From Clostridiales bacterium (lineage in GTDB: Bacteria; Bacillota; Clostridia; Caldicoprobacterales; DTU083), in assembly GCA_012839095.1 (NCBI GenBank), contig DUOA01000057.1:1-32079 (forward strand): a DNA stretch of 32,079 bases. Direction: 5' to 3'. The position numbers and the translations under genes are program-made. Below the pieces are notes generated by a model. That model made no database searches, was not told the origin of the DNA, and worked only from the letters and a program-made list of their open reading frames with translations. Below are positions 1 to 4,915 of this stretch, one piece after another. Each line of letters begins with the position of its first letter. Position 1 is the first letter of the stretch.

Positions 1-1151
1 CAAATGATCATTACACAGTTGTAGGCGTATACATAGCTGCAAACGAAGAGATTCACCTGATATTGGATAATGATAAGAATACTGCCAATCAGACAAGGTT
101 CTATAATCCGATGCTCAATGGTCAAGAAGCTGCTGGCTATGGATTATCATTTACCAATTATGAACCTTATTGGTATGAGGCAGGTACAACAATCAGCTTG
201 TCTTTTCCGGACAGCACCACTAAAGAAGTAACCGGTGTAAGGCTTTTTGATTTCAATCTGGGGCAGATGATGAGCTATCTTAACGAAGAAAACACCTTAC
301 AAATGCTAAATCAAGCAGACGGGTTCAGTATTAGAGGTATGACCTTTTATCTTAACCTGGGACACACCATCACCAAGGAAGTTAATAAACCCCTGGCTAC
401 AATCGGAGATGAACTTATTTATACTGTTGTTGTTGAAAATACCGGCGAGCTGACTCTCAGCGGTATTAACGTCTATGATGACCAGCCTGAAGGCATATCT
501 GTCACCGGTGTATCAGAAGATATGGAAACCTGGAATGATCCTGTCTTAACTGATGGTGTTGCTCTAGTGGCAGCCGGCTTAACCCTGCTTCCCGGAGAGT
601 CAAAGACCTACTATATAAAAGCGACAGTGACAGAAGATGCCAATGATGGAGATGTAATTATTAACACCGCTTTTACAGGAGGCAATGTACCCCGAAAAGA
701 GGCTGATGCTGAAGTTAAAATTGAGGTTAAGGTCAAGGTAACCATAAAGAAGGTTATCACAGGCAACTTCGGTGATTTGGGAAGGAAGTTCAGTTTCAGC
801 GTAACATCAGATAAGGGAAATCACTCTTATAATTTTGAACTCGGAAATAATCAGACCAAGGTTCTTGAAAATCTGCCTGCCGGTGCTGTTCTGACATTAA
901 CCGAGGAATCAGCAGGATATTCGGTTACAGTAATGGCAGCAGGGAATGAGATAGAGGCCAATGAGGAGAATGAATATCTAATTCCTCTGGGCAAAAATGA
1001 TGTAACAGTTACTGTAACAAACCACAGCAATATCGATATTAACACAGGCATCAACCTGGACTCCTTACCCTATATTATCATTCTGGCACTGGTGATTATA
1101 GGTATTGCTGTACTGCTGATACGCAGGTATGGAATCAGAAGCGAAGACTGA
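1..1151 (+). CDS. Sortase-anchored pilin/adhesin-like surface protein, C-terminal part (5' truncated)
   Basis: The reading frame is open from base 3 with no stop, so this is the C-terminal part of a larger protein; the TTG at 63 is only an internal codon. Seen in order: an unassigned region, a DUF11-like beta-sandwich (from 'ITKEVNKPLATIGDELIYTV'), a second beta domain starting 'KVTIKKVITGNFGD' that closely resembles one in the pilin at 2238, then a sorting signal INTG (1038-1049) followed by INLDSLPY, a hydrophobic helix and a basic tail (RRYGIR). The protein should be exported and covalently anchored or polymerised by the sortase at 3302. As the first and apparently largest member, it may be the tip adhesin, which is inference. 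The sorting motif lacks the usual Pro. The stop overlaps the next ORF (TGATG). Confidence 0.8.
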   Translation, partial: NDHYTVVGVYIAANEEIHLILDNDKNTANQTRFYNPMLNGQEAAGYGLSFTNYEPYWYEAGTTISLSFPDSTTKEVTGVRLFDFNLGQMMSYLNEENTLQMLNQADGFSIRGMTFYLNLGHTITKEVNKPLATIGDELIYTVVVENTGELTLSGINVYDDQPEGISVTGVSEDMETWNDPVLTDGVALVAAGLTLLPGESKTYYIKATVTEDANDGDVIINTAFTGGNVPRKEADAEVKIEVKVKVTIKKVITGNFGDLGRKFSFSVTSDKGNHSYNFELGNNQTKVLENLPAGAVLTLTEESAGYSVTVMAAGNEIEANEENEYLIPLGKNDVTVTVTNHSNIDINTGINLDSLPYIIILALVIIGIAVLLIRRYGIRSED

Positions 1152-1162
1152 TGGAGGGCTTT

Positions 1163-1600
1163 ATGAAAAACAGCAGTAAATCCCGCAGAAAAAAGAAGGC
1201 CAAGGTTCCGGCAGGCCATGCAGATTTAAAATCGATGCATGAAGCAGCAAAAATTCCCAAAGAACATGAGTTGAATCTGGAACAGGCGAAAATCGGCCAA
1301 TGGCTGAAGAAGCTGCGCTTTCGCAGGAAGTTGTTCGGAGGCGTAAGTGAGAAGGACGTATGGAAGAAGATAGGCGAGTTAAATGCCATGTATGAAGCCA
1401 GCCTTGCTGCAGAACGGATTAGATATGATACATTGATTGAATATTTTAAGAGAACAGGCATCAATGTGGTTGCCGGCAGGGAGGATAAAGAATCTTCCAT
1501 TGAGGATACAGGTTACGCAGAATCCGGCATCAAGCAAGAGAATAAAGATAAACATACCAACAGGAAGGTACTGAAACATAGGAAAATGACCAATGAGTAA
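1163..1600 (+). CDS. Small basic protein of unknown function in the pilus operon
   Basis: Not recognised. I prefer ATG 1163 because GGAGGG lies just upstream with 4-nt spacing; ATG 1151 is in frame but overlaps the previous stop and has no clear ribosome binding site. The 145-residue product has a very basic N-terminus (KSRRKKKAK), no signal peptide and no membrane segment, so it is probably cytoplasmic. The middle, around 'LFGGVSEKDVWKKIGELN', followed by a charged helix (YEASLAAERIRYD), faintly recalls the N-terminal membrane-targeting motif of DivIVA proteins (F..K.F.GY...EV..FL). That resemblance is only an impression. The last codons overlap the start of the signal-peptidase-like gene (ATGAGTAA), so the two are probably translationally coupled and work with the pilus genes. 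Confidence 0.7.
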   Translation: MKNSSKSRRKKKAKVPAGHADLKSMHEAAKIPKEHELNLEQAKIGQWLKKLRFRRKLFGGVSEKDVWKKIGELNAMYEASLAAERIRYDTLIEYFKRTGINVVAGREDKESSIEDTGYAESGIKQENKDKHTNRKVLKHRKMTNE

Positions 1601-2141
1601 AATGCAGAGTGTTCCCGATATTGCAGGCATCATAAAGAAACGAAGGCAAAAGCTGGAGATCAGGGAAGGATATATCAGCCTCATATGGAGAGCCCTCCTG
1701 ATAGCGGTAATTGGTTATGTAGTGTTTACACAGGTAATTATAGTAACACAGGCAAACGGTATCGGTATGTTCCCTGCAATCAAAGACGGGGATTTGATTA
1801 TCAGCTTCCGATTGCAGCAGGCATATACAAAAAATGATGTTGTTACCTATAAGGTTGACGGCATTCGGTATATCGGCCGGATTGCCGCACGGGAAAAGGA
1901 TGTTGTCACTATGGATGACAGCGGGACGTTTCTGGTAAACGGAACAGTACAGGGAGGTGAGATATTTTATCCTACATACCCCGGTGATACAATTCAGTAT
2001 CCATACACAGTGCCGGTAAATCACTGCTTCATACTTGGGGATTACAGGATACATACAAAAGACAGTAGGGATTTTGGTCCTGTACCGATGGAATCGGTGG
2101 AGGGAAAGGTAATTACCATTATACGGAGACGGGGTATATAA
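1593..2141 (+). CDS. Signal peptidase I-like protein (S26 fold) without catalytic Ser/Lys, SipA-like pilus factor
   Basis: 182 residues. One N-terminal membrane helix (about 31-51) is followed by the S26 boxes. Box B, normally S-M-x-P, reads G58-M-F-P, so the nucleophilic Ser is Gly. Box D, normally Y-x-K-R-V/I, reads Y-I-G95-R-I, so the general-base Lys is also Gly. Later fold motifs are kept ('GTFLVNG', then 'CFILGDY', 'DSRDFGPVP'), so this is a folded but probably inactive protein rather than a pseudogene. In Streptococcus pyogenes FCT pilus loci, SipA is a signal-peptidase-like protein without the catalytic dyad and is needed for pilus polymerisation; this gene fits that role by motif and position. 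It overlaps the preceding ORF by 8 nt. The alternative, a divergent active SipW-type peptidase, would need another catalytic residue. Confidence 0.88.
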   Translation: MSKMQSVPDIAGIIKKRRQKLEIREGYISLIWRALLIAVIGYVVFTQVIIVTQANGIGMFPAIKDGDLIISFRLQQAYTKNDVVTYKVDGIRYIGRIAAREKDVVTMDDSGTFLVNGTVQGGEIFYPTYPGDTIQYPYTVPVNHCFILGDYRIHTKDSRDFGPVPMESVEGKVITIIRRRGI

Positions 2142-2237: not shown

Positions 2238-3188
2238 ATGAAAAAATTACTTATATTGGTACTGGTTATGAGCCTCGTACTGGGGCTTGGTTTAGCAGCA
2301 TCAGCAGAGACATATGAAGATGGAAGTCCTGTAAGAATTGAAAAAGCACTTACCAATGGAGGAAAAGTAAACCCTGCAGAGACCTTTAACTTTACTGTAG
2401 GAGCAGGAGCAGGAGTAAGAGACGAGGCAGCATTAGATGCTCCGGCATTTAATCCCGCTGCATTCACTATTACTGTTGCGGAAGGCGGAACAGCAGGTTT
2501 TGCCGACATAAACCTGCCCGAGTTTTCACAGGTAGGAGTATACACCTATCCCATCACTGAAACTGCGGGCAATACGGCAGGGATGGTCTATGACTCTGCA
2601 ACCTATTATTTGGTAGTTACAGTAATCAACAATCCTGATTTTGGTGAAGAGAATGAGCCGGAATTCCTGCGTGTTCTTACACTGACGGATGAAAATAACG
2701 TAAAAGTGGATGATTTCGAAAATACCTTCAACGCCGGATCATTAACCATTAAAAAGGAAGTAACCGGTAACTACGGTGACCCCGATGATGAATTTACGGT
2801 TGTTGTTACTCTTGCACCTGCAGAAGGGAAAGTCTTAAAGGCTGCTCCTATTACAGCACCAGGCGGAGACAAGGTTATTAATGATGACGGCACCGTTACA
2901 ATTACCTACACTGTCAAGGATGGATCTGAATTCACCATTGATAACATCCCGTATGATGTAGCGTATACTGTGGAAGAGACGGAACCAGGTGCATATGAAG
3001 TGTCCTATGTCAATGAATCCGGGGAAATAGAAGCAGCAACTACAGAGACCACAATCACAAACCACAGGGATCTGGAGATCGCCACCGGTATCAATCTGGA
3101 CAGCCTGCCCTATATTCTCATTCTGGCAATAGCTGTCGGCGGCCTGGCTTTGTTAATAGTAAGAAAACGTATGGCTGTCAGCCGGTAA
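2238..3188 (+). CDS. Major pilin-like protein with Spy0128/FctA-type domains
   Basis: 316 residues. ATG 2238 follows a strong GGGGAGGAAG site. A signal peptide occupies about 1-23 (cleavage after ASA). Domain 1 (about 30-165) looks like a Spy0128/FctA pilin domain, with candidate isopeptide residues Lys36 (RIEKAL), Glu108 (GVYTYPITET) and Asn162 (FENTF). Domain 2 (about 168-277) has Lys172/173, Glu247 (YTVEETE) and Asn275 (ITNH) and resembles the last domain of the protein ending at 1151. The C-terminus carries IATG (281-284), then INLDSLPY, a hydrophobic helix and RKR, forming a cell-wall sorting signal with no Pro. It should be exported and joined into a pilus shaft by the downstream sortase. 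The major-subunit role is inferred from its two complete isopeptide-type domains and its place before the sortase. Confidence 0.88.
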   Translation: MKKLLILVLVMSLVLGLGLAASAETYEDGSPVRIEKALTNGGKVNPAETFNFTVGAGAGVRDEAALDAPAFNPAAFTITVAEGGTAGFADINLPEFSQVGVYTYPITETAGNTAGMVYDSATYYLVVTVINNPDFGEENEPEFLRVLTLTDENNVKVDDFENTFNAGSLTIKKEVTGNYGDPDDEFTVVVTLAPAEGKVLKAAPITAPGGDKVINDDGTVTITYTVKDGSEFTIDNIPYDVAYTVEETEPGAYEVSYVNESGEIEAATTETTITNHRDLEIATGINLDSLPYILILAIAVGGLALLIVRKRMAVSR

Positions 3189-3301: not shown

Positions 3302-4081
3302 ATGCAGACACTAAAGTTTATACTCAGGGCATCAAACGCACTTATAAGCTTTGTTACAGCAGTTTCATTGTGTGTTGCAGGGGTTTATGCCGGTTATGCC
3401 TTATGGGATAACAGCCGTGTCTATGCTGCAGCTGAAAATATTCAGGCGGATATGCTCAGGTTTAAGCCTGAAATAGTAGATGAGAAGCCTTCCTTTGAAG
3501 AGCTGATGGCAATTAATGCTGATGTACGAGCCTGGATTACAATGGATAATACCAAAATCGATTATCCGGTTTTGCAGGGCGAAACCAACCTGAGTTATTT
3601 AAACACCGATGTTTATGGCAACTTCGCCCTTGCAGGCAGTATTTTTCTCGACTCACGCAATGATGGGAATTTCAGTGATCCCTACTCACTGCTGTATGGT
3701 CATTATATGGAAAACAGCAAGATGTTCGGGGATTTGGAGCTTTATAAAGATAAGGATTTTTTCAGGGAAAACCGCACGGGAACCCTGATTCTGCCCGACG
3801 GGGTATATAGATTGGAAATCTACGCCTGCCTGCTCATTTCATCTACAGAGGATGCAATCTTTAATCCGGGACTATGGCAGGCTGATATAGATGAGTTACT
3901 GGAGTTTACGGAAGCCAATGCCCTGCACCTGAACAGGGATTTATCGGAAAAAGTGCATTCGGGTGGTCTTGAGCCTAAGTTTTTGGCCCTTACAACATGT
4001 ACATCAGAATATACGGATGCGAGAATAGCGGTACTTACTGTGATGGTACCAGGCTCACCAGCAAAGAAGGGGGGAATATGA
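3302..4081 (+). CDS. Class B-type pilin sortase
   Basis: 259 residues. A membrane helix near 12-35 anchors the enzyme with its catalytic domain outside. Sortase motifs are clear: 'KIDYPVLQG', 'AGSIFLDSRN', catalytic His134 in 'LLYGHYM', Cys233 in 'LALTTCTS' and Arg241 in 'DARIAVL'. The SIFLDSRN and YGH.M..SKMFG.L pattern points to the class B family. It is the only sortase visible here, so it most likely processes the surface proteins on both sides (INTG, IATG and TPKTG signals), joining pilins through isopeptide bonds and/or attaching them to peptidoglycan; another sortase may lie beyond the left edge. ATG 3302 is preceded by GGAG about 10 nt upstream. The stop overlaps the next start (ATGA at 4078-4081), suggesting translational coupling. 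Confidence 0.93.
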   Translation: MQTLKFILRASNALISFVTAVSLCVAGVYAGYALWDNSRVYAAAENIQADMLRFKPEIVDEKPSFEELMAINADVRAWITMDNTKIDYPVLQGETNLSYLNTDVYGNFALAGSIFLDSRNDGNFSDPYSLLYGHYMENSKMFGDLELYKDKDFFRENRTGTLILPDGVYRLEIYACLLISSTEDAIFNPGLWQADIDELLEFTEANALHLNRDLSEKVHSGGLEPKFLALTTCTSEYTDARIAVLTVMVPGSPAKKGGI

Positions 4082-4737
4082 TTATGAAAACAGGACTCAC
4101 AAGAATTTTAGCTGTATTATTCATATCCATTTTGAGTCTTACTCTGCTGATAACTCCAGCCCAGGCAGCAGAGGCCTCAGAGGTTGTGCTGCAGGTAACG
4201 GTTGTCCTGACCGGTGCAGAGCAGGATGACAGTGAGGACTATGAGATTGTGATTAAGGCAGATGATCCATCTTATCCTATGCAGGAGGGCAGTGAGGATG
4301 GGGAATATAAATTTATAATTACAGGTGAAAATACAGCTTCACTGCCTGCTATCCGGTTCCAGGATCTGGGTGTTTATACATACAGGATTTATCAGACACC
4401 CGGCACCAATGAATTGGGAATATATGATGACAGCGAGTACCTTATAACGGTTTATGTGACCAATGCGGAGGACGGCAGCGGACTGGTGTCCACAGTAATA
4501 GCACAAAAACCCGATGATGCGGTAAAGCTTGATGAAATCGTCTTTATCAACGAATACGAGATTGAGATCCCCGAAGAGGAAGTGCCCGGCGGCGAAGCTG
4601 ACCCCCCTGGCGATGAAGGCGGCGATACACCGAAAACCGGAGACGACGGTTTTATCTGGCCTTATGTGTTGCTGCTCATAAGTGCCGGTGCTGCCATTAT
4701 CATTCTTGCTTTATCCATGAGAAAGAAAAAGGTATAA
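4078..4737 (+). CDS. Minor pilin-like surface protein with TPKTG sorting signal
   Basis: 219 residues from ATG 4078, which overlaps the sortase stop; ATG 4084 is an alternative with better spacing from the GGGGGG site. The signal peptide runs to about residue 30 (PAQA). One Spy0128-like domain follows (about 36-162), recognisable by 'LGVYTYRIYQTPG' and 'FINEY'. At the position of the isopeptide Glu there is Gln106, and the Lys of the first strand is not evident ('VVLQVTVVLTG'), though Asn158 is present, so the internal cross-link is probably missing. An acidic Pro/Gly-rich stretch (about 162-183) leads to TPKTG (184-188), a hydrophobic helix and RKKKV, a near-canonical LPXTG-class signal. It is likely the wall-linked base or an accessory pilin. 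The operon ends here at a strong terminator. Confidence 0.85.
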   Translation: MIMKTGLTRILAVLFISILSLTLLITPAQAAEASEVVLQVTVVLTGAEQDDSEDYEIVIKADDPSYPMQEGSEDGEYKFIITGENTASLPAIRFQDLGVYTYRIYQTPGTNELGIYDDSEYLITVYVTNAEDGSGLVSTVIAQKPDDAVKLDEIVFINEYEIEIPEEEVPGGEADPPGDEGGDTPKTGDDGFIWPYVLLLISAGAAIIILALSMRKKKV

Positions 4738-4763
4738 AGTTTTGCATAATTAAGTTGTGTCTG

Positions 4764-4810
4764 ATGCTGAACAGGCTGTTGTTACGTCCTGTTCAGCATT
4801 CTTTGTTTTT
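4764..4810 (+). terminator. Intrinsic terminator of the pilus operon
   Basis: Perfect 12-bp inverted repeat, ATGCTGAACAGG at 4764-4775 and CCTGTTCAGCAT at 4788-4799, with a 12-nt loop, followed by a T-rich run (TCTTTGTTTTT). It lies 26 nt after the last pilin stop and just before the lepA promoter, so it separates the accessory pilus operon from the housekeeping genes. Confidence 0.9.
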
Positions 4811-4817
4811 AAGACAG

Positions 4818-4846
4818 TTGCAATTTTCTCCACAATTCTTTATGAT
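4818..4846 (+). promoter_or_regulatory. Sigma-A type promoter for lepA
   Basis: TTGCAA at 4818-4823 (-35) and TATGAT at 4841-4846 (-10) with a 17-nt spacer, directly after the pilus-operon terminator and about 70 nt upstream of the lepA start. Both boxes are near consensus. Confidence 0.7.
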
Positions 4847-4915
4847 ATAAAATGGATTCTTATAAACAAGTAAGTATTGGCAGGAAACCAATCAGATTAG
4901 GAGGCAATTGCAAAC

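What the first reader, a model, noticed from the sequence alone, without database searches (positions are those of the whole stretch)
1593..2141. Signal-peptidase-like pilus protein with both catalytic residues replaced by Gly
In the S26 boxes, the Ser of SMxP is Gly58 (G-M-F-P, codon 1764-1766) and the Lys of Y-x-K-R is Gly95 (Y-I-G-R, codon 1875-1877), yet the fold motifs remain. This repeats what is reported for Streptococcus pyogenes SipA (a pilus factor without the dyad, required for polymerisation), here in a Clostridia-type operon with a class B sortase. A dead signal peptidase would then be a widespread pilus-assembly chaperone rather than a streptococcal oddity.
Basis: partly seen in the sequence, partly recalled or inferred. 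Interest (0 to 1): 0.7.

Follow-up and report, generated by a model that had tools for sequence, protein, structure and literature searches.

The report
Dead signal peptidase for pilus assembly
The gene encodes a signal-peptidase look-alike that has lost its cutting residues, the Clostridia counterpart of Streptococcus SipA; it sits in a pilus operon, and relatives across gut and rumen bacteria show that dead copies go with one sortase class (B) while intact copies go with another (C).

Summary
Confirmed: window 1593-2141 is a 182-aa membrane-anchored S26 (signal peptidase I) fold with Gly58 at the Ser site and Gly95 at the Lys site. It is a SipA orthologue: best solved match S. pyogenes SipA (phmmer E 8.8e-26; model Z 21.6, 41% identity), in the GAS gene order (adhesin, sipA, fctA, class B sortase, fctB) plus one small gene. 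The 'widespread' claim holds: of 97 relatives of this type (Clostridia, some Erysipelotrichia, streptococci) 96 lost the Lys and about half also the Ser; 79 lie by a class B sortase, none by class C. All 18 SPases found beside class C pilus sortases kept Ser and Lys. The one exception, an intact copy, shares its operon with a dead one. The dead genes are under strong purifying selection (median dN/dS 0.11). Residues conserved only in the dead family lie outside the dyad boxes (Y126-x-T128, C-terminal R178-x-R180-G), which suggests a testable functional surface. How it acts remains inferred. New member of a known kind; moderately interesting.

The parts
1593..2141 (+). SipA-type signal-peptidase-like protein without Ser/Lys dyad (N-terminal membrane helix, then extracellular S26 domain from about residue 49)
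   Evidence: AlphaFold model pLDDT 91.3, best match 4n31
1764..1766 (+). Gly58 codon (GGT) at the nucleophile Ser site
1875..1877 (+). Gly95 codon (GGC) at the general-base Lys site
3..1151 (+). C-terminal part of a tip-adhesin-like pilin (DUF11, DUF5979, DUF7601), cut by the contig end; ends ...INTGINLDSLPY, membrane segment, basic tail
1151..1600 (+). 149-aa small protein (ORF149), family found directly 5' of SIP genes in 9 other loci; function unknown, weak DivIVA-like N-domain
2238..3188 (+). FctA-type major (backbone) pilin with signal peptide; sorting region IATGINLDSLPY
   Evidence: PF12892 E 5.2e-13, PF24547 E 9.6e-21
3302..4081 (+). class B sortase (candidate pilin polymerase)
   Evidence: TIGR03064 167 bits, over its cut-off
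4084..4737 (+). FctB-type basal pilin, sorting motif TPKTG
   Evidence: PF12892 E 5.6e-10, TIGR03786 E 7.5e-12; start inferred from the sequence (ATG at 4078 or 4084)

Best explanation
It is the SipA (LepA) orthologue of a class B sortase pilus operon: a type I signal peptidase that lost catalysis, most simply once in an ancestor of the whole family, and was kept as a membrane-anchored, non-cleaving assembly factor. Most likely working: the N-terminal helix holds it in the membrane with its domain on the outer face; there it holds newly secreted pilin precursors, alone or together with the class B sortase, so that the sortase can join FctA units, which in S. pyogenes fails without SipA. Shown here: dyad loss, fold, family membership, operon context, purifying selection, tight link to class B sortases. 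Shown elsewhere for S. pyogenes: needed for polymerisation, no peptidase activity, dead-site and cleft mutants tolerated. Inferred: the same role in this organism, and that the contact surface is not the dead cleft but family-specific positions (Y126, T128 in the cap; R178, R180, G181 in the C-terminal strand).
For: SipA is the closest solved protein by sequence (E 8.8e-26 against 1e-3 for the next SPase) and by fold (Z 21.6, 134 residues, rmsd 1.9, 41% identity; SPases about Z 16). Gene order equals GAS cpa-sipA-fctA-srtC-fctB plus ORF149 (PMC4049620). Census: 96 of 97 relatives of this type lack the Lys, and the Ser site is Ser in only 51%. Of the 96, 79 have a class B sortase as nearest sortase, none a class C, 14 lie on contigs too short to tell. 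Control: 18 of 18 SPases beside class C pilus sortases are intact (class checked on samples). Sortase-first sample of 382 Clostridia genomes: class B sortases beside FctA-type pilins lie in SipA operons, solo ones lack SipA. The dead set is one side of a branch, 96/97, with S. pyogenes SipA inside; with catalytic columns and L054's intact copy removed, aLRT 100. dN/dS median 0.11, 69 pairs. GAS: deletion abolishes polymerisation, dyad-site and V99R mutants tolerated (PMC4049620). S. suis: class C sortase, intact SipF, polymerisation persists without it (PMC2797073).
Against: No function was tested in any Clostridia member. Purified GAS SipA bound neither pilin, sortase nor pilin peptides (PMC4049620). 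Most of the relatives came from a scan whose pattern favours this clade, so counts are not frequencies; the unbiased subset is 23 sequences, including the window and GAS SipA. The class B/dead link may be one ancestral event and not many independent ones. Exceptions: L054 carries an intact-dyad paralogue in a class B operon, and L233 has a class B sortase with CnaB pilins but no SipA found.
Confidence: 0.8

Rival explanations
1. Signal-peptide holder: the protein still binds pilin signal peptides in the old cleft but does not cut, delaying release of precursors from the membrane until the sortase captures them.
For: The S26 fold is kept; a peptide sits in the GAS SipA cleft in the crystal (PMC4049620).
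Against: Positions beside the nucleophile (56, 58, 59) are not conserved in the dead family; a cleft-blocking V99R mutant of GAS SipA still polymerised pili, and signal-peptide fragments did not bind (PMC4049620).
Confidence: 0.15
2. A pilin-specific signal peptidase that uses other residues for catalysis.
For: About half of the relatives keep the Ser.
Against: The Lys is lost in 96 of 97, no other Ser/Lys pair is conserved, Ser is replaced by Gly, Asp, Glu, Tyr, Phe or Lys in relatives; GAS SipA has no activity (PMC4049620).
Confidence: 0.03
3. A decaying, functionless copy of a signal peptidase.
For: Active site lost.
Against: dN/dS median 0.11 over 69 pairs of dead genes; invariant family-only residues such as R178; fixed operon position in nearly all loci.
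Confidence: 0.02

Closest known systems
Streptococcus pyogenes SipA/LepA (PDB 4n31, 4k8w; FCT-2/3/4 pili)
   Same: S26 fold, membrane anchor, both dyad residues replaced, gene order with adhesin, FctA, class B sortase, FctB; shared C-terminal R-x-R-G-I
   Different: Gly/Gly instead of Asp/Gly in the dyad sites; extra small ORF149 between adhesin and sipA; other bacterial class (Clostridia); function untested
SipA of pneumococcal and Mitis-group pilus islet 2 (pitA-sipA-pitB-srtG1-srtG2)
   Same: SipA encoded in a pilus locus, reported essential for the pneumococcal PI-2 pilus (PMC3178606); streptococcal loci of this layout (L166-L170) have a dead SipA beside two class B sortases and fall in the dead clade
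   Different: two sortases and no FctB-type gene detected in those loci
Clostridium perfringens VR-10B (NE pilus) signal peptidase
   Same: class B sortase pilus operon of Clostridia with a signal-peptidase gene, synteny with streptococcal loci (PMC8088525)
   Different: its dyad state is not given in the passages read and could not be checked here
S. agalactiae PI-2b Lep and S. suis SipF
   Same: S26 protein encoded in a pilus operon
   Different: Ser/Lys reported intact; S. suis srtF is class C and SipF is dispensable for polymerisation (PMC4049620, PMC2797073); a different small orf lies upstream in loci of this layout (PMC5249243)

Membership tests
SipA/LepA pilus assembly factors | S26 signal-peptidase fold closest to SipA | tested here: met
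SipA/LepA pilus assembly factors | both dyad residues replaced | tested here: met
   Gly58, Gly95
SipA/LepA pilus assembly factors | encoded between adhesin and FctA, with class B sortase and FctB | tested here: met
SipA/LepA pilus assembly factors | same clade as S. pyogenes SipA | tested here: met
SipA/LepA pilus assembly factors | membrane anchor at the N-terminus | tested here: met
   model helix 10-48 with a hydrophobic stretch from about residue 32 (and sequence)
SipA/LepA pilus assembly factors | required for pilin polymerisation | not testable with these tools
   needs a deletion strain
SipA/LepA pilus assembly factors | peptide-binding cleft conserved | tested here: inconclusive
   fold kept, but positions 56, 58 and 59 vary in the family; no coordinates to inspect
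Type I signal peptidase (active S26) | Ser nucleophile and Lys general base | tested here: not met
SipW / ER-type signal peptidase | Ser with His in place of Lys | tested here: not met
   Ser site is Gly58, Lys site is Gly95

The most novel reading that the evidence does not exclude
Class B pilus sortases across Bacillota depend on a dead signal peptidase as an obligate partner, which acts not through the relic cleft but through a surface conserved only in this family (Y-x-T in the cap and R-x-R-G in the C-terminal strand), while class C pilus sortases never have a dead partner.
Probability: 0.45. Interest if true: 0.6.

Novelty: new member of a known kind. Interest (0 to 1): 0.42.

Why it matters
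How SipA works is stated as an open question in the GAS pilus literature. A large set of divergent relatives, mostly from gut and rumen bacteria, shows what evolution keeps (a C-terminal R-x-R-G and a cap Y-x-T) and what it discards (the active site), and ties the dead form to class B and the intact form to class C sortases. That turns 'unknown role' into a short list of mutants. It also warns that automatic 'signal peptidase I' annotation of such genes is misleading.

Tried and rejected
Viral-contig scan with the protein: no relatives. Plasmid scan: two lepB hits only. First 14-sequence alignment was too diverse for the pattern scan; a 6-sequence one worked. The first dyad reading of minus-strand loci was in the wrong orientation and was redone. 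Homology between ORF149 and the small orf before streptococcal lep was tested and not found (hhalign probability 0.2%). ORF149 as a DivIVA protein: only weak hits, not claimed. Rfam: nothing in the window. The dyad of the C. perfringens VR-10B protein could not be reached. An alternative Ser/Lys pair and gene decay were tested and rejected.

Full report
WHAT IS THERE. The ORF 1593-2141 (+) gives 182 aa. Gly58 is GGT at 1764-1766 and Gly95 GGC at 1875-1877. Pfam and NCBIfam call it Peptidase_S26 / signal peptidase I (E 1.9e-13 and 1.1e-24). Alignment with SPases and SipA puts these glycines at the Ser and Lys sites. Its start overlaps the end of the preceding ORF (1151-1600) by 8 bases. The neighbours are: a C-terminal piece of an adhesin-like pilin (3-1151, cut by the contig end), ORF149 (1151-1600), FctA-type pilin (2238-3188), class B sortase (3302-4081), FctB-type pilin (4084-4737). 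Next come EF4 lepA, hemW, hrcA, grpE, dnaK and dnaJ (recognised by eye from the translations, not tested).

FAMILY. The best solved relative is S. pyogenes SipA (E 8.8e-26); the next SPase has E 1e-3. An AlphaFold model made from 76 family members (pLDDT 91.3) has SipA 4n31 as best match in Foldseek (E 8.3e-14) and VIA-align (Z 21.6, 134 residues, rmsd 1.9, 41% identity; active SPases about Z 16). [quoted passage not shown] The same genome has two SPases with Ser and Lys intact.

HOW WIDESPREAD. In its own order 1 of 30 genomes has a match at 1e-12 (itself); in its class 28 of 391 at 1e-14, which includes ordinary SPases. The class is Clostridia by inference: contigs of genomes listed as same class equal records of Peptostreptococcus russellii and Hominisplanchenecus faecis in length and gene coordinates. 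Of the first SipA-like loci, nearly all have FctA-like pilin, class B sortase and FctB-like pilin directly downstream. A scan of species genomes found 112 relatives, 80 kept, mostly gut and rumen Clostridia, with Holdemanella, Sharpea, Eisenbergiella porci, Proteiniclasticum and Streptococcus hyointestinalis among them. The scan pattern [FYK]P[AM]IKDGD does not contain the two dyad sites, but it favours this clade.

DYAD CENSUS. After removing duplicates and adding streptococci, 96 sequences of this pilus type lack the Lys and one (L054:10440-10997) keeps both residues. Counting SipA 4n31 with the 96, the Lys site is G 77, A 14, R 4, S 1, L 1, and the Ser site S 49, A 12, G 12, D 8, N 5, E 4, T 3, others 4. 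In the 23 not chosen by the pattern the Ser site is G 8, S 5, D 5, E 2 and three others, the Lys site G 11, A 8, R 3, L 1. No other Ser/Lys pair is conserved. Pairwise dN/dS is low (median 0.11, maximum 0.24, 69 pairs), so these are genes under selection.

THE SORTASE RULE. The nearest sortase is class B for 79 of the 96 and class C for none; 14 lie on contigs too short to tell and 3 have none detected. Of 27 intact SPase genes found by the same searches, 9 had a class C sortase in the first stretch, and longer stretches added 9 more: 18 with class C. The others are 4 SPases without pilus genes nearby, 4 unresolved, and L054:10440-10997, which lies in a class B operon that also holds a dead copy. 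Sortase classes were confirmed with NCBIfam on ten samples; the rest were assigned by local profile scores. Starting from the sortase instead (382 genomes of the class), matches beside FctA-type pilins lie in SipA operons, solo class B sortases lack SipA, and one locus (L233) has CnaB pilins and a class B sortase without SipA. Published data agree in part: GAS SipA (class B) and pneumococcal PI-2 SipA are essential, whereas S. suis SipF (class C sortase, intact dyad) is not needed for polymerisation (PMC4049620, PMC3178606, PMC2797073). A review says the GBS PI-2b homologue is also required (PMC7900414), so 'intact means dispensable' is not general.

EVOLUTION. The dead set, with S. pyogenes SipA inside, is one side of a branch (96/97). 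With the catalytic columns left out and the long-branched L054 intact copy removed, support is 100; with it kept, two changes are needed. One ancestral loss of the Lys is the simplest reading; the L054 copy is either the last of the pre-loss lineage or evidence of a second event. The sortase rule is thus an association within deep clades, not many independent events.

MECHANISM. Residues conserved in the dead family but not in active SPases include Y126, T128, R178 and R180 (SipA Y116, T118, R169, R171), with Y86. R178 is invariant. K64-D65 also appear but were part of the scan pattern. The C-terminus of active SPases aligns less surely, so the contrast there is partly one of length and alignment. 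In GAS SipA the C-terminal strand is in the membrane-side sheet with L168 and V170 facing outward (PMC4049620), so R169 and R171 should face the other side (inference). GAS mutants in the dead site and in the cleft (D61A, D61S, D61A/K98A, V99R) still made pili (PMC4049620). I infer a non-cleaving holder of pilin and/or class B sortase that uses these surfaces. No contact has been shown; published pull-downs failed.

NOVELTY. The kind is known (SipA). A signal-peptidase gene with a class B sortase in a Clostridium pilus operon is published (PMC8088525). I found no paper in the held library that reports the dead dyad across Clostridia, the class B/class C contrast in numbers, or the family-only residues; subscription literature was not searchable. 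Rating: new member of a known kind, moderate interest.

Noticed in passing
window 1151-1600: ORF149, a small charged protein whose 9 relatives each lie directly 5' of a SIP gene (L046, L054, L055, L056, L057, L059, L061, L062, L065); shared core around F-[KR]-K-x-x-GGV-x-E-x-D-V-W-x-K-I; weak DivIVA-like N-domain.
   Followed up: partly
L054 10440-10997 and 6899-7468: One operon with both an intact-dyad SPase (next to an ORF149 relative) and a dead SipA, and two class B sortases.
   Followed up: partly
L173-L193: Class C pilus loci of streptococci and Clostridia carry a different coiled-coil small orf just before an intact lep, not homologous to ORF149 by hhalign.
   Followed up: partly
L233 4939-10385: Class B sortase with CnaB-type pilin genes but no SipA within about 5 kb: an exception to the pairing.
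   Followed up: partly
window 1021-1151 and 3055-3188: Adhesin and backbone pilin share an unusual sorting region, INTG/IATG followed by INLDSLPY, instead of LPXTG; the basal pilin has TPKTG.
   Followed up: no
window 4740-4915: The pilus operon lies directly 5' of lepA(EF4)-hemW-hrcA-grpE-dnaK-dnaJ; only 1 of 30 genomes of its order has the sipA gene, so it looks like an inserted islet.
   Followed up: no
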